A stretch of 64,000 bases of DNA, taken from NCBI RefSeq assembly GCF_026344005.1, contig NZ_JAPKNH010000003.1, positions 248,001 to 312,000 of the forward strand, given 5' to 3'. Of this stretch, positions 32,517 through 46,942 are shown piece after piece. Source of the stretch: Kaistia terrae. GTDB lineage: Bacteria > Pseudomonadota > Alphaproteobacteria > Rhizobiales > Kaistiaceae. A program made the position numbers and the translations under genes. Below the pieces are notes generated by a model, which saw only the letters and a program-made list of their open reading frames with translations, did no database searches and was not told the DNA's origin. Position 1 is the stretch's first letter; each line of letters opens with the position of its first letter.

Positions 32517-34319
32517 TCAGGCCGGTTCGAACATGGCCTGGATTTCCATTTCCGGCACCAGCACCAGACCCTTGTCGGTGATGCGGATCTCGGGAATGAC
32601 GGAGAGCGGAATCAGGTTGAAGCCCATATAGGGGATCGAGCAACCGGCCTTCTCCCACTCGACCTTCAGCGCCTTCGTCTCCTCGGCCACTTCGGTGACG
32701 CGCTTGTCGGAGAGCAGGCCCGCAATCGGCAGGTCGATCTTCGCCAGCACCTTGCCGTCCGCCACCACGCAGACGCCGCCCTGTGTCGCGGCGACCGTCT
32801 CCAGCGCCAGCTTCATGTCGGGCTCGTTGGTGCCGGCGATGATGATGTTGTGGCTGTCATGGCCGACCGACGAGGCGACGGCGCCGCGCAGCAGGCTGAA
32901 ATTCGACAGCACGCCATGCGCGACATTCCCGGCGGACTTGCCGTGCCGCTCGACCACGGTGACGAAGCAGAGGCCATGCCGCTCGAACAGGGTGCCCCAG
33001 TCGTTCGCCGCCTCGATCTCGATCCGGTCGTGGCCGAGCGTGATGCCTGGCAGTTCGGTGCGGATCGCGTGCAGCGTGCCGGGACCTGATGGCAATTCCG
33101 GGGTCAGCTTGAGGCCAGCGGGCAGCTTGACCGTCTGGTAGGCCGCCTTCGGATACTGATAGCGATCGGAAAGCGCCGCATCGAGCAGCGGCGTGATCTT
33201 CGCGCCATCGACGACCAGTTCGCCGCCATACCAGGTCGACTGCGGGTCGAGATCGTCGCCCATGAGCACCAGATCGGCCCGGCGTCCGCCGCCCATGCCG
33301 CCGATTTCGCCATCGTGACCGAAACGCGTCGCGCCATGCAGCGAGCCCATCGACCACGCCTGTTCCGGCGACATGCCGGCCTTGACCGCTTCGCGCACCA
33401 CCCAGTCGAGACCAAACAGCATCAGATCGTCGGCGTCGCGATCATCGGTGCAGACGGCGACGCGCTTATGCGAGGAACCAAGCTCGGTAATCGTCTTGAT
33501 CGCCTGCGGCAGCGAATGCCAGGGCGTCGTCGGCGGGCCGCCACGCAGGAACAGCCAGATGCCAGCCTCCAGCATGTCGTCGGCGATTTCGCGATCAATC
33601 GCTTCGTGCGTGTCAGTGACGCCACTGGCCGCATAAGCCGCGACGAACTCGCGACCATAGACGTGGCCGGACACTGGACGCCCGCGCGAGAGGGCGGCAG
33701 CGATGATGGCATGGCTGCGCTCGTCACCCATGGCGACGGGCACGAAATCCATCTTCTCGCCGAGCGCGACCGCTTCCGGCCATTTGTCGAACAGCGCCGC
33801 GATCTTGTCGGGCGTCAGGTCGCCACCGGCCGTCTCCAGCTCGGGAGAGGTCGCCGGCACCGTCGAGGGCACCGTCAGGAAGATCGACAGCGGGGCGACG
33901 CGCGCGTCTTCCAGCATCGCCTCGACGCCGGCGACGTCCATGACGTTGCCGATCTCATGGCTGTCGCAGAAGATCGTCGTGGTGCCGTTCAACAGCGCTG
34001 CCTCGGCATAGGCGCAGGCCGTCACCATCGACGATTCGATGTGGATGTGCGGATCGACGAGACCCGGCGCTATGATGCCGCCCTTGGCGTCATAGATCGC
34101 CTTGGCGCCGCCCTTGTGGGTGCCCGAAGGCTTTACGGCGGCGATGCGGCCACCGGAAATCCAGATCTCGCGCTCCGGCAGGATGCGCTCGGAATAGGTC
34201 GAGAGCACGCGCGCGCCCTGGATGACGAGATCGGGCGCGGCGCGGCCGGAGGCCACATCGGCAAGACGCCGTGTCATGGTCGCCAACGGCGCGACGGAGA
34301 AGCGGGTAAGCCTGGTCAT
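32517..34319 (-). CDS. ade: Adenine deaminase
   Basis: A 600-residue adenine deaminase of the metal-dependent AdeC type. Metal ligands are in [42 protein letters not shown] and [12 protein letters not shown] follow. The C-terminal domain has [23 protein letters not shown]. It converts adenine to hypoxanthine plus ammonia in the cytoplasm. ATG 34319 is preferred (GAGG 6 nt upstream). It is the last gene of the AraC-led leftward run, 85 bases after the GST gene, consistent with purine salvage. Confidence 0.92.
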
Positions 34320-34363
34320 TTCAACCTCGATCAATGGCGGCAGAACCTGCCGAGAACGTCTCT

Positions 34364-34387
34364 TCACCTCTCCCTGAGGGAGAGCTG
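34364..34387. repeat. Family B palindrome
   Basis: CTCTCCCTGAGGGAGAG hairpin in the gap between the GST and adenine deaminase genes. It has the same core as the elements flanking the LVIVD gene at 48.4 and 49.9 kb. Confidence 0.65.
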
Positions 34388-34403
34388 ACGAAAGCATACA
34401 TCC

Positions 34404-35033
34404 TCAATGATAATCAGGGATGCCCGGCATGGTGATGAAGCCCGGAATCGTCCGAACCCGCCGCATCCAGCGCCGGAGAGCCGGATATTCGTCGTGATCG
34501 ACGCCAAAGTCACGCGACAGCGCGATCGCCGGGAAGACGGCGATATCGGCAAGGGTGGCGTGATCGCCGACGAACCAGGCAAAGCCTTCGAGTTCCCGCT
34601 TGGTCATGTGGTCATCCATGATGCGGAAGGCCCGACGCGAGGCGGCGATAGCGGCATCCCGGTCGGCGGGGACCTCCAGCATGTCGTGCAGCCGCGCCAG
34701 CGTCGCCGGCGCAAGATCGGCGCTGGCAAAGAACAGCCAGACCATCACCTCGCCGAAGCGCTGGGAATCTGCGGGCAGCCACTGGCCGTCCCCGTCGTGC
34801 AGGCGGGCGAGATAACAAAGGATCGCACCGGAATCGCGCAGGGTCGTGTCGCCATCGACAAGGATCGGCAGGTTGCCGAGCGGGTTCAGGCGCAGATATG
34901 CCGGCGAGCGCTGCTCATGGCCGGGATGAACATTGACCGCCACCTTGCTGTATTCGATGCCAAGTGCCGAAAGCAGCAGCCGGACCTTGTAGCTGTCGGA
35001 GTCCAGTTCGTAGTCGTGCAGGACGAGGCTCAT
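34404..35033 (-). CDS. Glutathione S-transferase-like protein, candidate oxygenase accessory subunit
   Basis: A 209-residue canonical GST. The N-terminal thioredoxin fold starts MSLVLHDYELDSDSYKVRLLLS, with NPLGNLPILVDGD containing the cis-proline and LRDSGAILCYLAR containing the glutathione-binding Asp-Ser pair. An all-helical C-terminal domain has ATLADIAVFPA. It overlaps the Rieske-protein gene by ATGA. In the caffeine system, GST-like NdmE is a structural partner of the Rieske-less NdmC and of NdmD. A similar role is inferred here, but ordinary GST activity is possible. Confidence 0.85.
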   Translation of the reverse strand: MSLVLHDYELDSDSYKVRLLLSALGIEYSKVAVNVHPGHEQRSPAYLRLNPLGNLPILVDGDTTLRDSGAILCYLARLHDGDGQWLPADSQRFGEVMVWLFFASADLAPATLARLHDMLEVPADRDAAIAASRRAFRIMDDHMTKRELEGFAWFVGDHATLADIAVFPAIALSRDFGVDHDEYPALRRWMRRVRTIPGFITMPGIPDYH

Positions 35034-35719
35034 GCCAGCGCTCCCGCCTGCCGGGCAGCCGATGCGGGCGCGATTGCGGGCAGCGCTTCCAGCGTGGCGC
35101 GCAGGTCCTCGGCCCAGACGGCGATATCCTTGGGAGAGAGATCGCCGCCGGTGCGGGCAATATGCAGGGCGGAGCGTTCGGCGCCGTACGGCTGCAGCGC
35201 AAGGAACAGATCAGCGCCGTCCAGCGCGATACCGAACGTGCTCGACGACAGGCTCTCGAATGATCCGGCAAGGCCGGCTTCCAGCAGGAGCGCGACCATC
35301 TCCGGTGCGCGGTCGAGATAGAGGCTGCGCACGGGCACGGCAGCGAAGTCGGCCGGCGGCGGCTCGGTCGCCTCCGGCGCGGACTGCACCCAGATCATGC
35401 CGGCGGCCTCGACCGAGGCGTAGGTCGGCACCTTGATCGTCTCCGGCACTTCCAGGCTCGGATGCGCCGGGATGTGGCGGCACTGGCCGGCCTCGTCATA
35501 CTGCCAGCCATGATAGAGGCAGGCGATGTGATTGCCGCGCACGAAGCCGAACGAAAGCCGCATGCCGCGATGCGGACAGCGATCTTCCCAGACATGGCTG
35601 GCGCCCGACGCGTCGCGCCAGACCACCAGTTCCTTGTCGAAGAGCTGCGTCCCCGCCGAGGTCCCCGGCTCCAACCCGTCGCCAAGCGCTAGCGCATACC
35701 AGCCGGCTGCAAAACCCAT
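35030..35719 (-). CDS. Stand-alone Rieske [2Fe-2S] protein with novel C-terminal part
   Basis: A 229-residue protein. Residues 1-115 are a Rieske domain of the ring-hydroxylating oxygenase type: Cys48-Pro-His50 in WEDRCPHRGMRLSFGFV and Cys67-x2-His70 in ACLYHGWQYD. The remaining 110 residues do not contain the mononuclear-iron N-x2-D-x2-H-x4-H motif, so it cannot be a complete oxygenase subunit. ATG 35719 follows GGGGAACGGC. The missing catalytic domain appears to be the protein at 43230-44099, in the divergent operon. Alternatively it could be a ferredoxin-like electron carrier. Confidence 0.85.
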   Translation of the reverse strand: MGFAAGWYALALGDGLEPGTSAGTQLFDKELVVWRDASGASHVWEDRCPHRGMRLSFGFVRGNHIACLYHGWQYDEAGQCRHIPAHPSLEVPETIKVPTYASVEAAGMIWVQSAPEATEPPPADFAAVPVRSLYLDRAPEMVALLLEAGLAGSFESLSSSTFGIALDGADLFLALQPYGAERSALHIARTGGDLSPKDIAVWAEDLRATLEALPAIAPASAARQAGALA

Positions 35720-35756
35720 GACTGCCGTTCCCCTGTTTCTGGATATTCCGGAGCGG

Positions 35757-36020
35757 TCATTGCCGTTCCGCATTGCGATAGATGTCGAGCACGAGGCAAT
35801 CGATCGGCCCCAGGCTGCAGGCCATCTCGAACATGTCGACGAGATCGGCAGCCCCTTCGACCGCGACCTCGACCCGCTCATCACTGACCGTGCCGAGGCG
35901 CATGCCGAGCGACAGGCGGGCGGCGCGATGGCGCACGAATTCCGCAAAACTCTCCGGCTTGAAATGGCCGAGAAAGACCATCGTCACCGGCTCGGTCGTG
36001 GCTTGCCCAAGCTGCCTCAT
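35757..36020 (-). CDS. Small acylphosphatase-like protein, catalytic residues not conserved
   Basis: An 87-residue protein with the size and pattern of acylphosphatases (FVRHRAARLSLGMRLGTV, RVEVAVEG, ACSLGPIDCLVLDI). The arginine of the phosphate loop (F-R in the family) is replaced by alanine in ESFAEF, and the asparagine after the second helix is absent. It is therefore probably not an active acylphosphatase, and the fold itself is inferred. It overlaps the AraC gene as TGATG, with GTG 36023 as a possible alternative start, and precedes the Rieske gene by 37 bases. Confidence 0.65.
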   Translation of the reverse strand: MRQLGQATTEPVTMVFLGHFKPESFAEFVRHRAARLSLGMRLGTVSDERVEVAVEGAADLVDMFEMACSLGPIDCLVLDIYRNAERQ

Positions 36021-36982
36021 CACGCCAGTGCACCCTCGAATTCCGGCAATTGCTGGCGGCGATAATCGCGCGGCGCGACGCCGTAGCGCGACTTGAAGGC
36101 GCGGCGGAAATGCGCGTCGTTGTTGAAGCCCGAGCGGAGACCGATCTCGTTGACGGTCAGCGCGCGCAGATCGGCGCTCTCCAGCCCCTTGCGGCTCTGG
36201 TCGAGCCGGCGCTCGCGGATCCAGTCGGTGACGGATTGGCCGTCGCCCTGGAACAAATGGTGCAGATAGCGCACCGAGATGCCGTTGGCGCTGGCGATCC
36301 TGTCCGGGTTGAGGCCGTTATCGGCCAGCTGCGCATCGATGAAGGATTTGACCGCATTGAGGCGGCGGCGCTTGATCACCGAGCTCTGGTTTTCGTGCGC
36401 CTCCGACAACAGCGCTGCCAGCGCGCCGAGGCTGGCGACGACCCCCTCGGCAAAGGCGTCCTTGGCCCGCGCCGAGGGAATCGCATGGATGTCGGGAATG
36501 GCCCGGGCGCTGCCGAGCACGGTGGCGAGGATGCGATCGCTCGCCTCGATCCGCACGGCGCAGATGTCCTCCAGGCAGGAAACGTAAAGGCCGATGCGGC
36601 TCGACGGCACCTGCAGGATGACGACGGCGCCCTCCTCGACCTGAACATATTCGAGCGGACTGGTGGTCATGTGAAAGGCGGCCTGCCCGGCTTCGAGCTG
36701 CACGGTGCGGCCGAACTGCGAGAAGCTGCAGCGGGCGTCGAGCGGGATCGTCAGCACGAGGCGCTGGCGATGGGCGCGGTAGATCTCGTGCGGGGTCTGG
36801 ACGGCGACATAGCGCGGCGCCTTGAACAGCCTCAGGCCGAGCGTGCCGAGATCCCAGAGATTGAGGCTGGCGCGGAAGCCGGCGCGGTCGCCGGGCGCCA
36901 CCGTCATCGGGCTGCAGCTCTGCCACATCATGGCTTCCCATTCGGGATGGTCGAGCAAAGTGCGGGCACCGGACGGAAGCAT
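36020..36982 (-). CDS. AraC-family transcriptional regulator
   Basis: A 320-residue regulator. The N-terminal 180 residues resemble AraC_binding_2 (RLVLTIPLDARCSFSQFGR, TSPLEYVQ). The C-terminal 100 residues hold two helix-turn-helix motifs (NPDRIASANGISVRYLHHLFQ and LTVNEIGLRSGFNNDAHFRRAFK) and the end YGVAPRDYRR. ATG 36982 with GAGGGG upstream is chosen over 37015. It heads the leftward purine run and lies back to back with the adenosine deaminase operon, so it probably controls both. Confidence 0.92.
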   Translation of the reverse strand: MLPSGARTLLDHPEWEAMMWQSCSPMTVAPGDRAGFRASLNLWDLGTLGLRLFKAPRYVAVQTPHEIYRAHRQRLVLTIPLDARCSFSQFGRTVQLEAGQAAFHMTTSPLEYVQVEEGAVVILQVPSSRIGLYVSCLEDICAVRIEASDRILATVLGSARAIPDIHAIPSARAKDAFAEGVVASLGALAALLSEAHENQSSVIKRRRLNAVKSFIDAQLADNGLNPDRIASANGISVRYLHHLFQGDGQSVTDWIRERRLDQSRKGLESADLRALTVNEIGLRSGFNNDAHFRRAFKSRYGVAPRDYRRQQLPEFEGALA

Positions 36983-37262
36983 GAATTCCCCTCGTGGTGG
37001 GCGACGGATGCCCATCGCCTAACATTCAGGCATGTCTAACCTGTAGGCAATGCGACATCAATGCGCCTTCGCATCGGCGAGGCCGGAGCGACCCTCCGCC
37101 GAGCGCAACACGACCGGCGCGAGAGCGCAACGCCCCTCATGGCGTTGGACGCGGAAGCCGGTCAACGCCTTGGATCGGCAGGCCAGCCCAGCCCGCAGCC
37201 ATCATCGCAGGAAATTGGGACTGGCCTGAACATTGCTTCACAGGACCCCAGGAGTGAACCCG
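36983..37262. promoter_or_regulatory. Divergent control region of the purine regulon
   Basis: 280 bases between the AraC gene and the adenosine deaminase gene must hold both promoters. A loose inverted repeat CAGG-catgtctaa-CCTG is at about 37028-37044. No strong -35/-10 pair could be fixed. Confidence 0.4.
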
Positions 37263-38327
37263 ATGGACCTTGCCAGTTTCGCGCGCCGCATCCCCAAGAT
37301 CGAATTGCACCTTCATCTCGAAGGGGCAGTCCGGCCGTCGACTTTCGTGGAACTGGCGCGAAAGAACGCCGTCGAACTGCCGCCCTTTAGCGAGATCGAC
37401 GAACTCTACCGCTATGACAATCTGCCGGATTTCCTGAAGATCTACGATCTGGTCAGCCGCTCGATCCGCGACGCCGACGACTTTCATCGCGTCACCTATG
37501 AGATGCTGGAAAGCTGCGCGGCCAGCAACGCGCGCCATGTCGAGTTCTTCCTCTCGGCCCATGCCCATCTGGCGCAGGGCGTCGCTTACCAGACCATGCT
37601 GGAAGGCGTCCTGGCGGCGATGGCCGACATAGAGACCGACAAGGGCATCACCTCGCGGCTGATCCCGGCCCACAGCCGGGAACTCGGCCCCGAGAACGGC
37701 CTCGAATTCCTCGACATGGTGCTGGCCCATCGCAGCGACGAAATCATCGGCATCGGCCTCGACTACAACGAGGCGCCCTTCCCGCCCGCCCCATTCCAGC
37801 CGCTGTTCGAGCGCGCGAAGCAGGCCGGCCTGCATGTGACTGCCCATGCCGGCGAAGGTGGCCCCGCCGCCAACGTGCGGGATTCGCTGGAGATTCTGGG
37901 CGTCGAGCGGATCGACCACGGCTATCACGTCGTCGACGATCCGGCCCTCGTCGCGCAATGCCGCGAGGCCGGCACCTTCTTCACCTGCTGCCCGAGCACG
38001 ACAGAGGCGACGACCCAGTGGCGCGACCTGTCGGCACCGGACCATGCCATCCGCCAGATGCTCGATGCCGGGTTGAACGTCACCATCCATTCCGATGACC
38101 CGCCGATGTTCGCGACGGATCTGGCCAATGAATATGTCTTGGCCGCCTCGAAATTGCGCATGGACGCCCAGATGCTCAAGAAATGCGCACTCGATAGCAT
38201 CCGCGCCTCCTGGCTCGACGAAAGCGTCAAGCGCGCCTGGCTTGCCGACTGGTCGACCGAAATCGACGGGCTGATGGCCGAACTCGACGCCGCGACCGCC
38301 GCATCCCACCCAGAACTCACTTCCTGA
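37263..38327 (+). CDS. add: Adenosine deaminase
   Basis: A 354-residue enzyme of the adenosine/AMP deaminase family. Zinc-binding PKIELHLHLEGAVRP is at the N-terminus, the catalytic region HVTAHAGEGG in the middle, RIDHGYHVVDD and the late SDDPPMF complete the set. It converts adenosine to inosine. ATG 37263 has CAGGAG upstream. It is the first gene of the rightward operon, followed by a nucleoside importer. Some members of this family act on adenine instead; that alternative is not excluded. Confidence 0.88.
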   Translation: MDLASFARRIPKIELHLHLEGAVRPSTFVELARKNAVELPPFSEIDELYRYDNLPDFLKIYDLVSRSIRDADDFHRVTYEMLESCAASNARHVEFFLSAHAHLAQGVAYQTMLEGVLAAMADIETDKGITSRLIPAHSRELGPENGLEFLDMVLAHRSDEIIGIGLDYNEAPFPPAPFQPLFERAKQAGLHVTAHAGEGGPAANVRDSLEILGVERIDHGYHVVDDPALVAQCREAGTFFTCCPSTTEATTQWRDLSAPDHAIRQMLDAGLNVTIHSDDPPMFATDLANEYVLAASKLRMDAQMLKKCALDSIRASWLDESVKRAWLADWSTEIDGLMAELDAATAASHPELTS

Positions 38328-38352
38328 ACACCACAAAAACCGAGGGGACAGA

Positions 38353-39477
38353 ATGATCGACTTCAAGAACATGGACCGCCGCCGCTTCATGGGCCTTGCC
38401 GGCATGACGGCCGCCTCGTCGCTGATGCTGCCGCAGTTCGCCCGGCCGGCCTTCGGCGCCACGCCGCTCGCCGCCGTCAAGGAAGAAGAGGCCGTGATCG
38501 GCTTCGGCCATGTCGGCCCGATCTCGGACGAGGGCTGGACCTGGAGCCACCACCAGGGTCTCGAAGCGGTCAAGGCCGCCTTCCCGAAGGCAAAGTATCT
38601 CGAAGTCGAGAACATCCCCTTCTCGGCCGATTGCACGCGCATCTATCGCCAGATGGTGTCCGACGGCGCCAACATGATCATCTCGACGTCGAACTACGGC
38701 GATTTGATCTATGAGGTCTCGGACCGCGCCACCGACGTCGCCTTCATGGAGTGCGACGGCCACCGCAAGGCCGACAACCTCTCCTACTACTACATCCAGC
38801 ATTGGTTCCCGACCTATGTGGCGGGCGTCGCCGCCGGCATGCTGTCGAAATCCGGCAAGCTCGGCTATGTCGCCTCCTTCCCGGTTCCGGCCGTGTTCTG
38901 CGGCACCAACGCCTTCCTGATGGGCGCGCGCACGGTCAATCCGGAAGCGACGTTGCAGACGGTCGTCATCAATTCCTGGTTCGACCCGCAGGGTGCCAAG
39001 CAGGCCGGCACCGCGCTGATCGACAATGGCTGCGATTTCCTCTTCGGCATCATGGACGAGGCCGCCTACCTGCAGGTCGCGCAGGAGCGCGGCGTCTGGG
39101 CGGCGATGTGGAACACCGACATCCGTCGCTATGGCCCGGATGCCTATGTCACCTCGATCGTCCTCGACTGGAACCAGTACTACGTCGACCAGGTCCGCAA
39201 GCGGCTGGCCGGCGAATGGACCGGCGGCGAAGGCACGCTGCTGCCGATGGGCAAGGGCATCGACCGCGACGCCTGGGGCGCCAAGGTTCCGGCCGAGGTT
39301 GCCGCCAAGGCAGACGCCGTGCGCGACCGCATCCTCAACGACGGCTTCAATCCCTTCGTCGGCGAGATCAAGGACGTCGACGGCAATGTCCGCGTCAAGG
39401 CCGGCGAGACCATGAGCCCGGAAGCTCTCTACACCTGGGACTGGTCGATCGAGGGCGTGTCCGGCCTCAAGGTCTGA
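38353..39477 (+). CDS. BMP-family nucleoside-binding lipoprotein-like protein
   Basis: A 374-residue basic-membrane-protein (PnrA/TmpC type) binding protein. MDRRRFMGLAGMTAASS is a twin-arginine signal with cleavage near AFG-ATPL. The mature part has VIGFGHVGPISDEGWTWSHHQG, a long Asn/Asp-rich pocket region and GYVASFPVPAVFCGTNAF. No lipobox cysteine is seen. BMP proteins bind purine nucleosides, which fits the flanking deaminases. GAGGGGA precedes the ATG. Confidence 0.88.
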   Translation: MIDFKNMDRRRFMGLAGMTAASSLMLPQFARPAFGATPLAAVKEEEAVIGFGHVGPISDEGWTWSHHQGLEAVKAAFPKAKYLEVENIPFSADCTRIYRQMVSDGANMIISTSNYGDLIYEVSDRATDVAFMECDGHRKADNLSYYYIQHWFPTYVAGVAAGMLSKSGKLGYVASFPVPAVFCGTNAFLMGARTVNPEATLQTVVINSWFDPQGAKQAGTALIDNGCDFLFGIMDEAAYLQVAQERGVWAAMWNTDIRRYGPDAYVTSIVLDWNQYYVDQVRKRLAGEWTGGEGTLLPMGKGIDRDAWGAKVPAEVAAKADAVRDRILNDGFNPFVGEIKDVDGNVRVKAGETMSPEALYTWDWSIEGVSGLKV

Positions 39478-39491
39478 CGCCACGCAAACAG

Positions 39492-39513
39492 CCCCTCCCT
39501 GCGAAGGGAGGGG
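39492..39513 (+). repeat. Family B-type hairpin between binding-protein and ATPase genes
   Basis: CCCCTCCCT (39492-39500) pairs with AGGGAGGGG (39505-39513) around GCGA. It is placed as an intercistronic hairpin after the binding-protein gene, as also seen at 13413 and 3944. Confidence 0.6.
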
Positions 39514-39550
39514 CGCACTCCCCGCCTGTTAACGACGAGGACGCCCATCG

Positions 39551-41128
39551 ATGCCTGAACTTGCGGTCCAGAACGCTCCCGCCAAGCCGATCATCGCGCT
39601 GGAAGGCATCGGCAAGGTGTTTCCGGGCGTCATCGCCAATGCGGATGTCGATTTCGACCTGCGCCCAGGCGAGATCCACGCGCTGCTCGGCGAGAATGGC
39701 GCCGGCAAATCGACGCTGATGAACATCCTGACCGGCATCTACCGGCCGGATTCCGGCCGCATCCTGCTCGACGGCGTCGCCCAGAGCTTCAATTCGCCGG
39801 TCGAGGCGATTGCCGCCGGCATCGGCATGGTGCACCAGCATTTCAAGCTGGTGCGCGCCTTCACCGTCGCCGAGAACGTCCATCTGGGCTGGAAGGATAC
39901 GCCGCGTTTCGCCTCGGCGCAGGTGCTGGAAGCGCGGACGCGGGAACTCGCCGAGCGCTACGGCCTCGCCGTCCGCCCCGAAGCGCGCATCGACGAACTT
40001 TCCGCCGGCGAGCAGCAGCGCGTCGAAATCCTGCGTGTATTGGCCCGCCAGGCGCGCGTGCTGATCCTGGACGAACCGACCGCCGTGCTGACGCCCGCCG
40101 AGGCGCGTACCCTGTTCAAGGCGCTGCGAGCTTTCCGCGCCGCCGGCAACTCGGTCATCTTCATCAGCCACAAGCTCGACGAGGTGCTGGAGATTTCCGA
40201 CCGCGTCACGGTGCTGCGCGGCGGCCGCAAGGTCGTCACCGAGCCGACGGCCAACTGCACCACGACCAAGCTGGCCCAGTTGATGGTTGGCCGCGAGATG
40301 GTGCTGGGCGGCCTGCGCGAGGCAATGGCGCCGCGCAGCGAACCCGGCCGCGTCGTGATCTCGCTGCAGAACGTATCCGCCGCCGATGATCGCGGCCGCG
40401 CCGGGCTGATCGATGCCAATCTTGAAGTGCGGGCCGGCGAGATCCTTGGCATCGCCGGTGTCGCCGGCAACGGCCAGCGCGAGCTCTCCGAAATCCTGAC
40501 CGGCGTGCGCAAGCCGACCAGCGGCCAGATCCTGATCGAAGGCGTCGCGGTCGAGGACCCGTCGCCGTCGCTGTTCCTCGATATCGGCGTCGGCCATATC
40601 CCGGAGGATCGGCTGCGCAGCGGCGTCGCGCCCAGCCTCTCGGTCAGCGACAACGCCGTGCTGCGCGCCTACACCGAGCCGCCGATCGCGCAGGGAATCC
40701 TGTTCAAGCCCGGCGCCGCCGACACGCTCGCCAGAGAGATCGCGGCCGATGCCGAGGTGACCCTGCCGTCGCTGCGCACGCCGATCCGCAACCTTTCCGG
40801 CGGCAACCAGCAGCGCCTCGTCGCCCGGCGCGAAATGCGCATCGCCAGGCTCGCCATCGTCGCCGCCTATCCGAGCCGCGGCCTCGATGTCGGCGCGATC
40901 GCGACGCTGCTTCGCTACCTGATCGACCTGCGCAATTCCGGCGTCGCCGTCGTGCTGATTTCCGAGGAGCTATCCGAATTGTTCGACGTCACCGACCGCA
41001 TCGCCGTCATGTTCAAGGGACGGGTGATGGGGCTGTTCGAGACACAGGACGCCGATCTCGAAACGGTCGGCCTGCTGATGGGCGGGCAGACGAAGCAGCC
41101 TGTCGTCCAGACCGTCGAGGCCGCCTGA
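39551..41128 (+). CDS. Nucleoside ABC transporter ATPase, double NBD (YufO/NupO-like)
   Basis: A 525-residue ATPase with two nucleotide-binding domains. NBD1: Walker A GENGAGKST, signature LSAGEQQ, Walker B VLILDEP. NBD2: Walker A region GVAGNGQRELS, signature LSGGNQQ, and a Walker B of LAIVAAYPSRGLDVG without the usual glutamate, which is normal for the second half in the BMP-type importers. The stop is one base before the permease ATG. Confidence 0.9.
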   Translation: MPELAVQNAPAKPIIALEGIGKVFPGVIANADVDFDLRPGEIHALLGENGAGKSTLMNILTGIYRPDSGRILLDGVAQSFNSPVEAIAAGIGMVHQHFKLVRAFTVAENVHLGWKDTPRFASAQVLEARTRELAERYGLAVRPEARIDELSAGEQQRVEILRVLARQARVLILDEPTAVLTPAEARTLFKALRAFRAAGNSVIFISHKLDEVLEISDRVTVLRGGRKVVTEPTANCTTTKLAQLMVGREMVLGGLREAMAPRSEPGRVVISLQNVSAADDRGRAGLIDANLEVRAGEILGIAGVAGNGQRELSEILTGVRKPTSGQILIEGVAVEDPSPSLFLDIGVGHIPEDRLRSGVAPSLSVSDNAVLRAYTEPPIAQGILFKPGAADTLAREIAADAEVTLPSLRTPIRNLSGGNQQRLVARREMRIARLAIVAAYPSRGLDVGAIATLLRYLIDLRNSGVAVVLISEELSELFDVTDRIAVMFKGRVMGLFETQDADLETVGLLMGGQTKQPVVQTVEAA

Positions 41129-41129
41129 C

Positions 41130-42209
41130 ATGAGCGGATTGCAATCCCTCCGCCTCGTTCGCGTCTCGGCCGTCTCCGGCCGCCGCATCCTCGCCGCGCG
41201 CGTGCTGAGCTTCATCGCGGCGCTAGCGGTCGGCGCCATCGTGCTCGCCGCTTGTGGCTTCGATCCGCTGCATCTCGGCACCCAGATCATCAAGAAGAGC
41301 CTCGGCTCGCGCTTCGGGCTGGAAGATCTCGGCCTGCTGCTGACGCCGCTGATCCTGACCGGCCTCGCCGTCACGGTGATGATGAAGATCGGCCTCTGGA
41401 ACATCGGCGCCGACGGCCAGTTCTACATCGGCGCCTTCGCAGCGACGGCCATCGGCCTGTTCGTCAAGGGCCCGGAGCCGTTCATGCTGCTGCTCTGCTT
41501 CATCGCGGGCGCAGCCGGCGGCGCTGTCTGGATTCTCGTGCCGACGCTGGCCCGCGCCTATGGCAAGGTCGACGAGATCATTACGACGCTGCTGTTGAAC
41601 TTCGTCGCCTTGCTGCTGGTCTATTACGTCGCCACGGGCCCGTGGCGGGATCGCACCACCGGCACCGTCGCCTCGACCGGCCGCGTGCCCTACGAGATGC
41701 CGGATTTCTTCGGCTCGCTGCATTGGGGCTTCGTCATCGCGCTGATCGCGCCGGTGCTGTTTGGCTTGCTGCTGCGCTACACCAAATGGGGCTATGAAAT
41801 CCGCCTGACCGGTGCCAATCCGGAAGCCGCGCACTATGCCGGCATTCCGGTCCGCCGCCGGATGATCACCATCATGCTTCTCTCCGGCGCCATCGCCGGC
41901 ATTGCCGGCATGCTGGAAGTGACCGGCACGGTGCATCGCCTGCAGGGCGGCATTTCCAACAATTACGGTTATCTCGGCGTCATGGTCGCGGTGTTGGCGC
42001 GCGGGTCGCCGGCCGGCGTCATCGCCGGTGCGCTCTTGATGGCGATCATCCTGAACGCCGGCATCATCTTGCAGACGCAGGGCCTGACCACCGCCGCCGT
42101 TCTCGCCCTGACCGGCCTGATCATGATGTTCACGGCGGTTGCCGACCAGTTCGCCCATTACCGCCTCGTCCGTGCCCTGCCCCAGGCAGCGGCGACGGCG
42201 GCTGGCTGA
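41130..42209 (+). CDS. Nucleoside ABC transporter permease 1 (YufP-like)
   Basis: A 359-residue BPD_transp_2 permease with about ten hydrophobic segments. TVMMKIGLWNIGADGQFYIGAFAA and YEIRLTGANPEAAHYAGIPV are the family segments. It forms one half of the heterodimeric channel. Function in purine nucleoside uptake is inferred from the binding protein and the flanking deaminases. Confidence 0.9.
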   Translation: MSGLQSLRLVRVSAVSGRRILAARVLSFIAALAVGAIVLAACGFDPLHLGTQIIKKSLGSRFGLEDLGLLLTPLILTGLAVTVMMKIGLWNIGADGQFYIGAFAATAIGLFVKGPEPFMLLLCFIAGAAGGAVWILVPTLARAYGKVDEIITTLLLNFVALLLVYYVATGPWRDRTTGTVASTGRVPYEMPDFFGSLHWGFVIALIAPVLFGLLLRYTKWGYEIRLTGANPEAAHYAGIPVRRRMITIMLLSGAIAGIAGMLEVTGTVHRLQGGISNNYGYLGVMVAVLARGSPAGVIAGALLMAIILNAGIILQTQGLTTAAVLALTGLIMMFTAVADQFAHYRLVRALPQAAATAAG

Positions 42210-42218
42210 GGAAATCCC

Positions 42219-43154
42219 ATGGAACTCATCACCGGCATCCTGACGACGGCGTTCCTGGCAGGCGGCGTGTTGGCGCTGGCAGCGCTCGGCGAAGTGCTGG
42301 CCGAGCGCGTCGGCGTCTTCAATCTCGGCGTCGAAGGGCTGATGGCGCTGGGTGGCGTCACCGGCATCATCGCCGTGACGCTCTATCCCAACCCGTTCTT
42401 CGGCTTCGCTATGGCGCTGCTGGTCGGCCTCGGCTTCGGCGCGCTGTTCGCGCTCGCGACCGTCGTCTTCCGCGCCAACCAGGTGCTGTGCGGTCTGGCG
42501 CTGACCATGCTCGGCTCCGGCCTCGCCGTCACCATCGGCAAGAGCTATTCCGGCATGCCGGCCAAGGCGACGTTCGAGAAGATCATCGTGCCCTATCTGA
42601 GCGATCTGCCTATCCTCGGCCGCGCCTTCTTCTCGCAGAATATCCTCGTCTACCTGATCTATCTGATCATCCCGGCCATCATCTCCTTCGTGCTGTTCCG
42701 CACCCGCCACGGCATGAATGTCCGCGCCGTCGGCGAGAACCCGGCCGCCGCCGATTCCGCCGGCATCCCGGTGACGCTGATCCGTTTCTGCTACGTCACC
42801 ATCGGCGCGGCGCTCGGCGCGGGGGCCGGCGCCTATCTGACGCTCGCCTTCGTGCCGTCCTGGTCGGACGGTGTGGTCGCAGGACGCGGCTGGATCGCGG
42901 TGGCGCTGGTGATCTTCGCCGGCTACCGGCCGTTCGGCGCGGTGTTCGGCGCGCTGCTCTTCGGCGTCATCACGGCGATCGGCTATGTCGGTCAGGCGCG
43001 CAACTGGCCGATCTCGCCCACCTTCCTGTCGATGCTGCCCTATCTCGGCACCATGCTGGCGATGATTCTGCCCGTGTTCCTCTGGCGTCGCCTGCGGCTC
43101 GGCTTCACCGCCCCGGCCGGCCTCGGCGTGCCGTTCTTCCGCGACGAACGATGA
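42219..43154 (+). CDS. Nucleoside ABC transporter permease 2 (YufQ-like)
   Basis: A 311-residue permease, second half of the channel. The family segment ERVGVFNLGVEGLMALGGVTG is near residue 30, and MNVRAVGENPAAADSAGIPV is the cytoplasmic loop. GAGGAAA lies before the ATG. Confidence 0.9.
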   Translation: MELITGILTTAFLAGGVLALAALGEVLAERVGVFNLGVEGLMALGGVTGIIAVTLYPNPFFGFAMALLVGLGFGALFALATVVFRANQVLCGLALTMLGSGLAVTIGKSYSGMPAKATFEKIIVPYLSDLPILGRAFFSQNILVYLIYLIIPAIISFVLFRTRHGMNVRAVGENPAAADSAGIPVTLIRFCYVTIGAALGAGAGAYLTLAFVPSWSDGVVAGRGWIAVALVIFAGYRPFGAVFGALLFGVITAIGYVGQARNWPISPTFLSMLPYLGTMLAMILPVFLWRRLRLGFTAPAGLGVPFFRDER

Positions 43155-43229
43155 CCCGGCTCGCTCGAGAAGCGAGTGTGTGCAACATTTGGCGGCCTGC
43201 CCGCCGCATCTGCCCTGAGGAGAATGGCC

Positions 43230-44099
43230 ATGGCAAGACCGGCTGAAAAAGCATCCCTCGACCAGTGGTACGTGATCGACATCGCGGCCGATATTCCGGC
43301 CGAGGCGAAGCCGAACCGGCTGCTCGGCCGCGACCTCGTCGTCTCCCGCGATGCGGCCGGAACCGTCGTCGTGCGGGAGAAGCTGGAAGGCGGCGCGCTT
43401 GGCGAGAGCCTGCCGACGCGCGACCGCTACGGCTTCATCTGGACGACGCTCGGCACGCCGGAGCGTGAACTGTTCGACATACCCGAAGCCGACGAGCCCG
43501 ACCGGCGGCATGTCGTCTGCGGCGCGGTCGCCGTCCGCGCCTCGGGCCTGCGCATCGTCGAGAACTTCCTCGACATGGCGCATTTTCCCTTCGTCCACAC
43601 AGACATCCTCGGTGCCGAGCCGCACACCGAAGTGCGCCACTACACGACCGAGATCCGCCGCGACGTCGACGAGGTCTGGGCCACCAATTGCGAGTTCTTC
43701 CAGCCGCAGGCCGCCCTTTCGGCCGCGGGCGGGATCATGACGCAGTACATGTACCGCGTCGCGGCCCCGTTCCAGACGCTGCTCTACAAGACCTGCCCGG
43801 CGGCGGCGAACCGCTGGGACGTGATCTGCCTGTTCGTGCAGCCGCTCGACCATGACCGCTGCCGCGCCCATCCGGTGATGTTCATCATCGACGACGAGAG
43901 CACGCTGACCAGCATGGTGCATTTCCAGCAGCTGATCTTCCTGCAGGACCGCATCATCCTGGAGAACCAGCGCCCGCGCCTGCTGCCTCTGGAACCCCGT
44001 GCGGAAATTCCGACCCGCGCCGACATTTCCTCCGTCGCCTACCGGCGCTGGCTGAAGGAGAAGGGCGTCACCTTCGGAACCGCCGAACGCGCCGCCTGA
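43230..44099 (+). CDS. Rieske-oxygenase catalytic subunit lacking the Rieske domain (NdmC-like organisation)
   Basis: A 289-residue protein. The start WYVIDIAADIPAE-LLGRDLVVSR is the normal N-terminal strand of a VanA/Ndm-type oxygenase. After residue 50 the cluster-binding CxH and CxxH parts are absent and the sequence passes to RYGFIWTTLG. The mononuclear-iron site is complete: Asn112-x2-Asp115-x2-His118-x4-His123, and Asp240 in FLQD as third ligand. It needs an external Rieske protein, most simply the one at 35030-35719. ATG 43230 is favoured because GAGGAG is 7 nt upstream. A purine or methylpurine substrate is inferred from context. Confidence 0.85.
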   Translation: MARPAEKASLDQWYVIDIAADIPAEAKPNRLLGRDLVVSRDAAGTVVVREKLEGGALGESLPTRDRYGFIWTTLGTPERELFDIPEADEPDRRHVVCGAVAVRASGLRIVENFLDMAHFPFVHTDILGAEPHTEVRHYTTEIRRDVDEVWATNCEFFQPQAALSAAGGIMTQYMYRVAAPFQTLLYKTCPAAANRWDVICLFVQPLDHDRCRAHPVMFIIDDESTLTSMVHFQQLIFLQDRIILENQRPRLLPLEPRAEIPTRADISSVAYRRWLKEKGVTFGTAERAA

Positions 44100-44159: not shown

Positions 44160-45488
44160 ATGACCATCGATATTGCCATCATCAACGGCACCGTGCTGCC
44201 GATGGGCGGCGCCAAGCCGATCGAGAACGGCGTCGTCACCATCACGGGCGGCACGATCACCGCGGTCGGCCCGGCCGACGAGGTCGATATCCGCGGCGCG
44301 CGCAAGGTCATTGACGCCTCGCTCTCGGCGGTGATGCCGGGCTTCTGCGACAGCCATACCCACATCGCCTCCAACATGCTGCTGCGCGGGCTGCTGGAGG
44401 ACGTGAAGCTGTTCGAATGGCTCTCGACCATGTGGCAGCTGAAGAAGAACTTCGATCCCGAGACGCTCTATTGGGCGAGCCTGACCGGCCTCGTCGAGAT
44501 GGTGAAATCCGGCATCACCACGTTCAACGAGCATTTCGACGCCTATGCCGTCGAGCCGGAGATCGAGGCGCTGAAGCGGATCCCGCTCCGGGCAACCCTC
44601 GGCTATGGCTTCGCCGATCGCGGTCTCTATGCGCCGATCACCGACTGGTCGTGGAAAACGTTGAATAATTTCGGCGATCTCGTCGCGAAGCATCACAAGA
44701 CCCGCGACGGCCTGCTGCAGATCGGCCTGTCGCCGCATGCGCCCTATTCCTGCGGCGAGGAAATGTACCGGCTGACGCGCGAGGTGGCCGACGCCTACAG
44801 CGTGCCGATCCACACCCATCTCGCCGAGGGCACGCAAGAAATGGCCTATATGGCCGAGAACTACGGCACCTCGCCGGTGCGCTGGCTGGAATCGCTCGGC
44901 TTCCTGAAGGGCGACATCACGGCGGCCCATTGCACGCAGCTCGACACGGAGGACATGAAGATCCTGGCGGCGCATGACGTCAAGATCGGCCATTGCCCCT
45001 GCTGCAACGCCAAGCTCAACTCCGGCACCATGCCGCTCAAATGCGTGCTGGAACACGGCATCACGGTCGGCCTCGCCACCGACGGCCCGGCGAGCCACAA
45101 CACGCTCGACATGTTCCAGGAGATGAAGTTCGCCGGCCTGATCCACAAGGACAAGACCAACGACGTCGAGTTCCTGAAGACCCACGAAATCCTGGAACTG
45201 GCAACCGCGCAGGGCGCCAAGGCGATGAATCGGCCGGAGACAGGCCAGCTCGTGCCCGGCATGGCGGCCGACGTGATCGTCGTCGATCTCGACAAGGCGC
45301 ACAGCCTGCCCGTCTATGACACAGCAGCGGCCCTCGTCTATTCGAGCCGCGCCGACGACGTGACCCACACCATCGTCAACGGCCGAATGCTGATGGAAAA
45401 GCGCATCGTCGCGGGTATAGACGAGGCGGAAATCCGCCGCGAATTCCGCACCCGCGCCCATGCGCTGCGCCAGCGCAGCCTCGGCTGA
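44160..45488 (+). CDS. Amidohydrolase, MTA/SAH deaminase (TrzA/AtzB-type) family
   Basis: A 442-residue amidohydrolase. Metal site PGFCDSHTHIAS (HxH), HTHLAEG, AAHCTQL and the catalytic aspartate in ATDGPASHN are all present. Neighbours in the family are 5'-deoxyadenosine or S-adenosylhomocysteine deaminase, 8-oxoguanine deaminase and s-triazine hydrolases. Position between the oxygenase and guanine deaminase genes favours a purine substrate. GGGGCAGCC lies upstream of the ATG. The exact substrate is open. Confidence 0.8.
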   Translation: MTIDIAIINGTVLPMGGAKPIENGVVTITGGTITAVGPADEVDIRGARKVIDASLSAVMPGFCDSHTHIASNMLLRGLLEDVKLFEWLSTMWQLKKNFDPETLYWASLTGLVEMVKSGITTFNEHFDAYAVEPEIEALKRIPLRATLGYGFADRGLYAPITDWSWKTLNNFGDLVAKHHKTRDGLLQIGLSPHAPYSCGEEMYRLTREVADAYSVPIHTHLAEGTQEMAYMAENYGTSPVRWLESLGFLKGDITAAHCTQLDTEDMKILAAHDVKIGHCPCCNAKLNSGTMPLKCVLEHGITVGLATDGPASHNTLDMFQEMKFAGLIHKDKTNDVEFLKTHEILELATAQGAKAMNRPETGQLVPGMAADVIVVDLDKAHSLPVYDTAAALVYSSRADDVTHTIVNGRMLMEKRIVAGIDEAEIRREFRTRAHALRQRSLG

Positions 45489-45571: not shown

Positions 45572-46942
45572 TTGACCGACCTCCGCAACAAGACGATCAC
45601 CGGCACCTTCTGCCATGCACCGGTACTCGGCCAGATCGAGATCCTCAAGGGTGCGCTGGTCGAGATTGATGGCGAGGGCCGGATCGCGGATGTGATCCCG
45701 GCAGGCAGCGCCGCGCATGTCGAGAAGCGGGCGGCGGCGGAGGCAGCGGGGACGCTCGTCGTCGCGCCGGCGAAAAGCTACGTCCTGCCCGGCTTCGTCG
45801 ATCTGCACATCCACGCGCCGCAATATCCCCAACTCGGCAAGGCGCTCGACGTGCCGCTGGAGGTTTGGCTGCAGCAACACACCTTCCCGCTCGAGGCGCG
45901 CTATGCAGACCTCGCCTTCGCGCGCCGCCACTATTCGGCGCTGGTCGAGGATCTGATCGCCAACGGCACGACGACGGCGCTCTATTTCGCCACCCAGCAT
46001 GTCGAAGCCTCGATGGCGCTGGTCGACATCTGCCTGGAGAAGGGCCAGCGCGCCCTCGTCGGTAAGGTGGCGATGGATAATCCGGCCGAATGCCCGGAAT
46101 ACTATCGCGACGCCTCGGCCGAGGAAGGCATCGCCGGCACGAAGGCGCTGATCGACTATGTCGCCGCGCATCCGGAAAACCACGGCCTCGTCCATCCGGT
46201 GATCACGCCGCGCTTCGTGCCGTCCTGCACCGATCCGCTGCTCGAAGGGCTCGGCAAACTGGCGCGCGAATGCGGCTGCCACGTCCAGACCCATTGCTCG
46301 GAGAGCGACTGGGCGCATGGCTATGTGCTCGACCGCTTCGGCCGCACCGACGCCGAGACGCTCGACCGTTTCGGGCTGATGACGCGCCGGACCGTGCTGG
46401 CGCATTCGAACTTCCTGACCGATGGCGACATGGACCTGATCCATGCGCGCGGCGCCGGCGTCGCCCACTGCCCGCTCTCCAACGCCTATTTCGCCAATTC
46501 CGTGTTCCCGCTCCGGGCCGCCTTGGCGAAGGGCGTGCGCGTCGGCCTCGGCACCGACATCTCCGGCGGCCCGACCGCCTCGATGATCGAGGCGCAGCGC
46601 ATGGCGATCGCGGCTTCGCGCATGCTGGAGACCGGCGTCGATCCGGCTCAGCCGCAAGAGACGCGCGGCCGCCCCGGCTCGCGCATCGATTTCGACGTCG
46701 CCTTCCATCTGGCGACCGCCGGCGGCGGCGACGCGCTCGACCTGCCGGTCGGCCAGTTCGCCCCCGGATTCCACTTCGACGCCATCCTCGTCGACCCGGA
46801 CGCGCCGGGCAGCACGATGCGGGTCTGGGACGACATAGACAGCGACGAGGACGCGCTGCAGAAGATCGTCTACACCGCCTCGAAGGCCAATCTCGCAGCC
46901 GTCTGGATCGGCGGGCGTCCTGTCACCGGAGCGGCCCTTTAG
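45572..46942 (+). CDS. guaD: Guanine deaminase
   Basis: A 456-residue guanine deaminase of the amidohydrolase superfamily. The family zinc motif PGFVDLHIHAPQYPQ is distinctive, followed by VQTHCSES, VLAHSNFL, HCPLSNAYFANSVFP and GTDISGG. It converts guanine to xanthine. Translation starts at TTG 45572 with AGGA upstream. It is the last gene of the rightward purine operon, 83 bases after the previous gene. Confidence 0.9.
   Translation: MTDLRNKTITGTFCHAPVLGQIEILKGALVEIDGEGRIADVIPAGSAAHVEKRAAAEAAGTLVVAPAKSYVLPGFVDLHIHAPQYPQLGKALDVPLEVWLQQHTFPLEARYADLAFARRHYSALVEDLIANGTTTALYFATQHVEASMALVDICLEKGQRALVGKVAMDNPAECPEYYRDASAEEGIAGTKALIDYVAAHPENHGLVHPVITPRFVPSCTDPLLEGLGKLARECGCHVQTHCSESDWAHGYVLDRFGRTDAETLDRFGLMTRRTVLAHSNFLTDGDMDLIHARGAGVAHCPLSNAYFANSVFPLRAALAKGVRVGLGTDISGGPTASMIEAQRMAIAASRMLETGVDPAQPQETRGRPGSRIDFDVAFHLATAGGGDALDLPVGQFAPGFHFDAILVDPDAPGSTMRVWDDIDSDEDALQKIVYTASKANLAAVWIGGRPVTGAAL

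What the first reader, a model, noticed from the sequence alone, without database searches (positions are those of the whole stretch)
35030..44099. Split Rieske oxygenase with GST-like partner inside a purine-salvage regulon
The Rieske cluster and the mononuclear-iron catalytic site sit on different proteins. The protein at 35030-35719 has CxH...CxxH (Cys48, His50, Cys67, His70) and no iron motif. The protein at 43230-44099 has N112-x2-D115-x2-H118-x4-H123 and Asp240 but has lost the cluster-binding segment after residue 50. A GST-like gene overlaps the Rieske gene by ATGA. Established knowledge: in Pseudomonas putida CBB5 the N7-demethylase NdmC lacks a Rieske domain and works with NdmD (extra Rieske plus reductase) and GST-like NdmE. 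The genes here are flanked by adenosine, adenine and guanine deaminases and a nucleoside importer. Inference: a new split purine (or methylated purine/nucleoside) oxygenase whose reductase is elsewhere.
Basis: partly seen in the sequence, partly recalled or inferred. Interest (0 to 1): 0.88.

Follow-up and report, generated by a model that had tools for sequence, protein, structure and literature searches.

The report
Two-protein Rieske oxygenase for purines
A bacterium carries an oxygen-using enzyme whose electron-carrying part and catalytic part appear to be two separate proteins, encoded beside purine uptake and breakdown genes; the same set of partner genes recurs in many related bacteria.

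Summary
The 229-aa protein (35030-35719, minus strand) has an intact Rieske cluster site and no mononuclear-iron motif. The 289-aa protein (43230-44099) has an intact mononuclear-iron site and only a stub of the Rieske domain. Together they cover one SxtT/NdmA-like oxygenase. They co-occur: all 46 genomes with a catalytic-only gene (of 297 sampled in the order) have a Rieske partner in the fetched stretch, free-standing in 31, fused to a reductase, NdmD-style, in 15. A GST-like gene is there in 45 of 46. The NdmC/D/E analogy is right by homology, but the Rieske subunit here carries no reductase, and no NdmD-type reductase was found in the window's genome at 1e-5; a general ferredoxin chain probably serves. 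Best reading: a heteromeric Rieske oxygenase acting on an imported purine. Purine context is strong here; substrate and reaction are not shown. Structure prediction failed, so assembly is inferred. New variant of a known kind (split, NdmCDE-type).

The parts
43230..44099 (+). catalytic-only Rieske oxygenase subunit (289 aa): mononuclear-iron ligands H118, H123, D240, bridging D115; stub of Rieske domain, no cluster ligands
35030..35719 (-). free-standing Rieske [2Fe-2S] subunit (229 aa): C48/H50/C67/H70; C-terminal ~115 aa without iron site
34404..35033 (-). GST-like protein (209 aa), NdmE-like partner; start overlaps Rieske stop (ATGA)
35757..36020 (-). degenerate acylphosphatase-like small protein (87 aa); catalytic Arg and Asn mostly lost in the family
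36020..37015 (-). AraC-type regulator, stop overlaps start of the acylphosphatase-like gene (TGATG)
32517..34397 (-). adenine-deaminase-like protein (626 aa), last gene of the minus-strand run
37233..38327 (+). adenosine deaminase
   Evidence: TIGR01430 290.7 bits, cut-off 216.55
38353..39477 (+). BMP/PnrA-type substrate-binding protein
   Evidence: PF02608 124.6 bits
39551..41128 (+). ABC transporter ATPase
41130..42209 (+). ABC transporter permease
   Evidence: BPD_transp_2
42219..43154 (+). second ABC transporter permease, immediately before the catalytic gene
   Evidence: named from position and appearance, not scanned against a family library
44160..45488 (+). amidohydrolase of the purine/triazine deaminase superfamily, 60 bp after the catalytic gene; exact substrate unassigned
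45572..46942 (+). guanine deaminase
   Evidence: TIGR02967 408.6 bits, cut-off 375.4

Best explanation
The two proteins are complementary subunits of one Rieske non-haem iron oxygenase. SHOWN by sequence: one subunit keeps only the Rieske cluster, the other only the mononuclear iron; both are conserved, linked and found together with a GST-like and, mostly, an acylphosphatase-like protein. INFERRED: in ordinary enzymes of this family the electron already passes from the Rieske cluster of one subunit to the iron of its neighbour (about 12 A), so putting the two centres on separate chains can leave the electron path intact. The Rieske subunit would sit at the interface that a neighbour's Rieske domain fills in SxtT or NdmA, held by the GST-like scaffold as NdmE holds NdmCD. 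Electrons come from a general ferredoxin and ferredoxin reductase, because no dedicated NdmD/PDR-type reductase was found in this genome. The acylphosphatase-like protein is a non-catalytic subunit (assembly or electron-donor docking). The enzyme oxidises a purine base or nucleoside brought in by the BMP-type ABC transporter, most simply removing an N-alkyl (methyl) group, and the product enters the adenine, adenosine and guanine deaminases beside it. My estimates by step: the pair works as one oxygenase 0.85; substrate is a purine-type compound 0.75; reaction is N-dealkylation 0.4.
For: Complementary coverage of one SxtT/SxtDIOX-like protein: catalytic residues 60-284 align to 106-333, Rieske residues 6-113 to 11-120. 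Metal ligands invariant in the aligned rows. Linkage: Rieske partner in 46 of 46 order-sample genomes and 77 of 80 named loci; GST in 45 of 46 and 76 of 77; the 3 named loci without a Rieske gene (L137, L140, L190) hold the second type of catalytic gene. Conversely, all 32 matches of 95 bits or more to the Rieske protein in the 297 genomes lie in genomes with a catalytic-only gene. The two fused relatives scanned have Rieske, NAD-binding and plant-type ferredoxin domains, the NdmD architecture. The split catalytic proteins fall together apart from six full-length enzymes (89/96). Only one split pair in the genome. Transporter: BMP gene in 18 of 31 free-type and 64 of 77 named loci. Literature passages on NdmCDE and on inter-subunit electron transfer.
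Against: No substrate evidence. At the thresholds used, no purine marker (BMP, adenine-deaminase-like or other amidohydrolase) in 17 of 49 order-sample loci and 11 of 80 named loci. I made no search for formaldehyde-detoxification genes; none was recognised beside the pair, unlike in the Cupriavidus locus. In the window the two genes are about 8 kb apart on opposite strands, not in one operon. A Rieske ferredoxin with its own reductase exists elsewhere, so the electron path is open. Named loci were the best 80 of 580, so biased to close relatives.
Confidence: 0.62

Rival explanations
1. The pair works as described but is not an N-demethylase: it hydroxylates the purine ring, or cleaves a larger N6 side chain such as that of cytokinins, giving adenine for the neighbouring adenine deaminase.
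For: Adenine-deaminase-like genes lie in 6 of 31 free-type order-sample loci and 26 of 77 named ones. The second catalytic type sits with a GMC oxidoreductase, a TPP-enzyme domain protein, a molybdenum hydroxylase and an aldehyde dehydrogenase (L070), suggesting an oxidisable side chain. HpxD-type Rieske enzymes are tied to plain purine oxidation (passages of PMC7373994).
Against: The nearest characterised split relative, NdmC, is an N7-demethylase (passages); NdmA and NdmB, also N-demethylases, match, though the saxitoxin-pathway enzymes SxtT/SxtDIOX (hydroxylases, recalled) match better. Two paper searches for a cytokinin link found nothing to the point.
Confidence: 0.3
2. The catalytic subunit is served by a different electron donor (for example the Rieske ferredoxin beside the desaturase-like oxygenase, G000:C12) and the Rieske-only protein serves something else.
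For: A Rieske ferredoxin with a flavin reductase exists in the genome.
Against: That pair sits with its own oxygenase. Catalytic-only and Rieske genes are linked in 46 of 46 genomes. Four free-type genomes (G099, G278, G293, G237) have two catalytic-only genes but only one strong match (180 bits or more) to the Rieske protein.
Confidence: 0.08
3. The genes are decaying remnants of two full-length oxygenases, each half broken, without function.
For: Each protein keeps only part of a full-length oxygenase; the C-terminal half of the Rieske protein is poorly conserved.
Against: Open frames, invariant ligands and recurrence over many genera; 88-97% identity of the catalytic protein in six other genomes of the genus.
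Confidence: 0.03

Closest known systems
NdmC-NdmD-NdmE, 7-methylxanthine N7-demethylase of Pseudomonas putida CBB5
   Same: Catalytic subunit without Rieske cluster, Rieske domain on another protein, GST-like third partner, purine context (passages); the fused relatives have the NdmD domain order
   Different: Here the Rieske subunit is free-standing (no flavin, NAD or ferredoxin domain), an acylphosphatase-like protein is added, no NdmD-type reductase found in the genome, substrate unknown. The NdmC sequence itself was not available for comparison
SxtT / SxtDIOX (GxtA) and NdmA / NdmB full-length Rieske oxygenases
   Same: Best matches of known structure to both halves
   Different: Both metal centres on one chain; different substrates
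HpxD/HpxE purine-oxidation Rieske system of Klebsiella
   Same: Rieske chemistry tied to purine breakdown
   Different: HpxD a full-length oxygenase and HpxE its reductase (recalled); here split and without dedicated reductase
Acylphosphatase family (PF00708)
   Same: 21 of 26 aligned members match PF00708 at E up to 1, best 2e-8; their profile matches acylphosphatase structures at 8e-5
   Different: Catalytic Arg kept in 4 of 99 and Asn in 2 of 99; the window's own member does not match PF00708 at E up to 1. A canonical acylphosphatase is encoded elsewhere in the genome

Membership tests
Rieske non-haem iron oxygenase (alpha subunit) | CxH...CxxH Rieske cluster site | tested here: met
   on the 35030-35719 protein; invariant in 31 and 56 rows
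Rieske non-haem iron oxygenase (alpha subunit) | 2-His-1-Asp iron site with bridging Asp | tested here: met
   on the 43230-44099 protein; invariant in 39 and 45 rows
Rieske non-haem iron oxygenase (alpha subunit) | both centres on one polypeptide | tested here: not met
Rieske non-haem iron oxygenase (alpha subunit) | C3-symmetric oligomer with inter-subunit electron transfer | not testable with these tools
   structure prediction failed and was switched off
NdmCDE | catalytic subunit lacking a Rieske cluster | tested here: met
NdmCDE | Rieske domain fused to the reductase (NdmD) | tested here: not met
   229-aa protein ends without reductase; fused in 15 of 46 genomes
NdmCDE | GST-like partner encoded with the pair | tested here: met
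   window 34404-35033; 45 of 46 genomes
NdmCDE | dedicated PDR-type reductase in the genome | tested here: not met
   no match at 1e-5 in the window's genome; 1e-20 or better in 13 of 31 free-type genomes
NdmCDE | N7-demethylation of 7-methylxanthine | not testable with these tools
   needs an assay
Acylphosphatase | sequence homology to the family | tested here: met
   by family profile: 21 of 26 members at E up to 1, best 2e-8; window member alone does not match
Acylphosphatase | catalytic Arg and Asn | tested here: not met
   Arg in 4 of 99, Asn in 2 of 99
HpxDE | full-length Rieske oxygenase plus separate reductase | tested here: not met

The most novel reading that the evidence does not exclude
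A widespread class of modular Rieske oxygenases in which the cluster is a free-standing, exchangeable subunit. One Rieske/GST/acylphosphatase-like set can serve one or two catalytic subunits, and a catalytically dead acylphosphatase has taken over a role (docking of a general ferredoxin, or assembly) that the fused reductase plays in NdmCDE.
Probability: 0.35. Interest if true: 0.8.

Novelty: new variant of a known kind. Interest (0 to 1): 0.66.

Why it matters
A 2015 review calls NdmCDE 'very unique': the first reported case of a Rieske domain split off the oxygenase (there fused to the reductase) and the first needing a GST-like protein (passages of PMC4408171). Here is a large, mostly alphaproteobacterial relative that goes one step further: cluster and iron on two small proteins with no reductase attached. 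If it works, it is a natural system in which the two metal centres can be expressed, mutated and swapped separately, which would make the inter-subunit electron transfer of this enzyme family directly testable. It would also identify an unrecognised branch of purine use in rhizobia and their relatives.

Tried and rejected
Riboswitch idea: an Rfam scan at gathering scores of the window and four relatives (L063, L068, L073, L070) found three matches, all sRNA families, and no purine or NMT1 riboswitch. Reductase in the cluster: no reductase-profile hit at 1e-4 in the 80 named loci. That the acylphosphatase-like gene and the reductase replace each other: the raw contrast is strong (29 of 31 against 0 of 15), but the tree gives only three independent pairs and no significance; of 59 tree rows ten have neither and one (L071) has both, and 8 of 77 named free-type loci lack the gene, some of them short contigs. 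Kept as an idea only. Direction of evolution: the catalytic tree places the free type as one group (96/87) among fused ones; the Rieske tree makes free (93/88) and fused (91/96, with one very long L107 row inside) sister groups; outgroups are distant, so 'free from fused' is only suggested. A worn catalytic domain in the C-terminal half of the Rieske protein: not established (probability 18%, P 0.0013). Cytokinin link: two paper searches found nothing to the point; not excluded. Paper searches for acylphosphatase with Rieske oxygenase returned none; those for split or separate Rieske, and for Rieske with GST, purine and Rhizobium, listed nothing on this variant; the library lacks most subscription journals.
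Full report
WHAT IS THERE. The minus strand carries a compact run: an AraC regulator (37015-36020), an 87-aa ORF (36020-35757), the Rieske protein (35719-35030), a GST-like protein (35033-34404) and an adenine-deaminase-like protein (34397-32517); two of the junctions overlap. The plus strand carries adenosine deaminase, a BMP-type ABC importer (four genes), the catalytic protein (43230-44099), an amidohydrolase and guanine deaminase.

COMPLEMENTARY HALVES. Both proteins have the same best relatives of known structure, SxtDIOX/SxtT, then NdmA. Residues 60-284 of the catalytic protein match SxtDIOX 106-333, residues 6-113 of the Rieske protein match 11-120, so together they cover one enzyme. 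In 39 rows (window plus 38 of the 60 stretches) E111, N112, D115, H118, H123 and D240 of the catalytic protein are invariant. In 31 rows (window plus 30 of 50 stretches, two of them full-length enzymes) C48, H50, C67 and H70 of the Rieske protein are invariant. Sets from named loci agree (45 and 56 rows, window included, chosen from 80 and 76 stretches). The catalytic proteins still start with the first strands of a Rieske domain (hhalign E 5e-11 for the single comparison), so they look like full-length-type enzymes that lost the cluster loops rather than bare catalytic domains. The C-terminal half of the Rieske protein may be a worn catalytic domain, but the evidence is weak.

CO-OCCURRENCE. 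Of 297 genomes of the order, 54 match the catalytic protein at 1e-10. I took stretches of up to 20 kb from 48 of the 53 others; five whose matches lie in longer frames (359-410 aa) were not fetched. Forty-six genomes, the window's included, have a catalytic-only gene; three fetched ones have full-length enzymes. All 46 have a Rieske partner in the fetched stretch: free-standing in 31, fused to a reductase in 15. Conversely, all 32 matches of 95 bits or more to the Rieske protein lie in these genomes. GST-like genes: 45 of 46. Acylphosphatase-like genes: 29 of 31 free, 0 of 15 fused. Three genomes of the window's genus have a second catalytic gene at another place with no Rieske gene near it, and one genome of another family has two catalytic genes flanking one set: four of 31 free-type genomes. 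In the fused type 6 of 15 loci have two. In genome contigs (the best 80 of 580 confirmed loci, so biased to close relatives; some share a contig, and some are the same genomes as in the order sample) 77 of 80 have a free Rieske gene; of those 77, 76 have a GST-like gene and 69 the acylphosphatase-like gene. Record titles include Rhizobium, Agrobacterium, Mesorhizobium, Bradyrhizobium, Methylorubrum, Gluconacetobacter, Celeribacter and Pacificibacter. Across the phylum the catalytic protein is found at 1e-40 in 15 of 398 sampled genomes. R. leguminosarum plasmid pRL9 carries annotated acylphosphatase, Rieske, catalytic and GST genes in a row, with a BMP importer downstream.

RELATION TO NdmCDE. 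Two fused relatives scanned have a Rieske domain, an NAD-binding domain and a plant-type ferredoxin domain, and the C-terminal part of one matches phthalate dioxygenase reductase: the architecture described for NdmD. A profile of that part finds it in all 15 fused proteins it was built from. NdmCDE is described in two reviews (passages seen: PMC4408171; PMC10380055): NdmC lacks a Rieske cluster, NdmD carries it, the GST-like NdmE is structural, the complex is about 360 kDa (3:3:3). [quoted passage not shown] so split enzymes in rhizobia are not new as such. I did not have the NdmC sequence; Klebsiella and Pseudomonas plasmid loci served as stand-ins because that review names relatives of those genera as among the closest. 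In the catalytic-domain tree (68 rows after removing near-copies from 147) the split proteins lie apart from six full-length ones (89/96); the free type, with the three loci that lack a Rieske gene, is one group (96/87), and the Klebsiella and Pseudomonas fused pair is next to it (93/85). The Rieske tree (73 rows from 135, few columns) separates free from fused instead.

ELECTRON SUPPLY. The window's genome (99.35% complete) has no match to the NdmD-type reductase at 1e-5. PF00175 finds two proteins: one CysJ-like, one beside an MsrP-like molybdoprotein; PF00111 finds seven, among them a ferredoxin beside a thioredoxin-reductase-like ferredoxin reductase and one beside sulfate-reduction genes (these names are my reading of the sequences). 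Among 31 free-type genomes, 13 have a reductase match of 1e-20 or better and 18 do not; in two of the 13 it is next to the set (L071, L107). A dedicated reductase is therefore not a fixed part of the free type. The genome also has a Rieske ferredoxin with a flavin reductase beside a desaturase-like oxygenase.

THE FOURTH PARTNER. Of 26 aligned members (window plus 25 of 29) of the 87-aa protein's family, 21 match Pfam acylphosphatase at E up to 1, best 2e-8, and their profile matches solved acylphosphatases at 8e-5. The window's own copy does not match PF00708 alone. The two residues needed for acylphosphatase activity (recalled: Arg23, Asn41 of the muscle enzyme) are kept in only 4 and 2 of 99. 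It is best read as a non-enzymatic subunit. A canonical acylphosphatase is encoded elsewhere.

SUBSTRATE. Context points to purines: a PnrA-type importer gene in 18 of 31 free-type and 64 of 77 named loci, plus adenine-deaminase-like and other amidohydrolases. At the thresholds used, 17 of 49 and 11 of 80 loci show none of these markers. The amidohydrolase after the catalytic gene resembles 8-oxoguanine, methylthioadenosine and triazine hydrolases but meets none of the equivalog cut-offs shown. Which purine, and whether a methyl or other group is removed, is open.

MECHANISM. Review PMC12445004 (passages) states that the Rieske cluster of one subunit lies about 12 A from the iron of the next, linked by a conserved aspartate. 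An aspartate in the matching motif is invariant here (D115; its bridging role is by analogy). A trimer-like ring alternating or stacking the two proteins would keep that path; this is inference, as no model could be made.

ORGANISM.

Noticed in passing
L070 4369-15609 and relatives (L069, L072, L074, L082, L137, L140): A second type of catalytic-only gene sits in a gene run with a LysR regulator, a TPP-enzyme domain protein, a GMC oxidoreductase, an amidohydrolase, a two-subunit molybdenum hydroxylase and an aldehyde dehydrogenase (domains scanned in L070 only); in L069, L070 and L072 no Rieske gene is nearby.
   Followed up: partly
L099, L100, L101, L103, L105, L106: Two catalytic-only genes in tandem before one Rieske-reductase fusion gene; four first copies group together in the tree (81/68), and both kinds of copy keep the iron ligands in the rows aligned.
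   Followed up: partly
L109, L110, L111: Full-length, unsplit relatives lie beside the same type of BMP importer, with a guanine-deaminase-like gene in two of the three, in one family (f38).
   Followed up: partly
window 26289-26487 (+): Match to the Rfam family Cis90_sRNA (77.2 bits).
   Followed up: no
G000:C12 about 538200-541500 (L212, L216): Desaturase-like oxygenase, Rieske ferredoxin and ferredoxin reductase, reminiscent (recalled) of the rhizopine MocDEF genes; a candidate electron donor.
   Followed up: partly
L206, L207: NdmCDE-type genes on conjugative plasmids of Pseudomonas fulva and Klebsiella pneumoniae, each with a full-length Rieske oxygenase, a TIM-barrel protein and a 2-oxoglutarate oxygenase (hpxO in the former).
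   Followed up: partly
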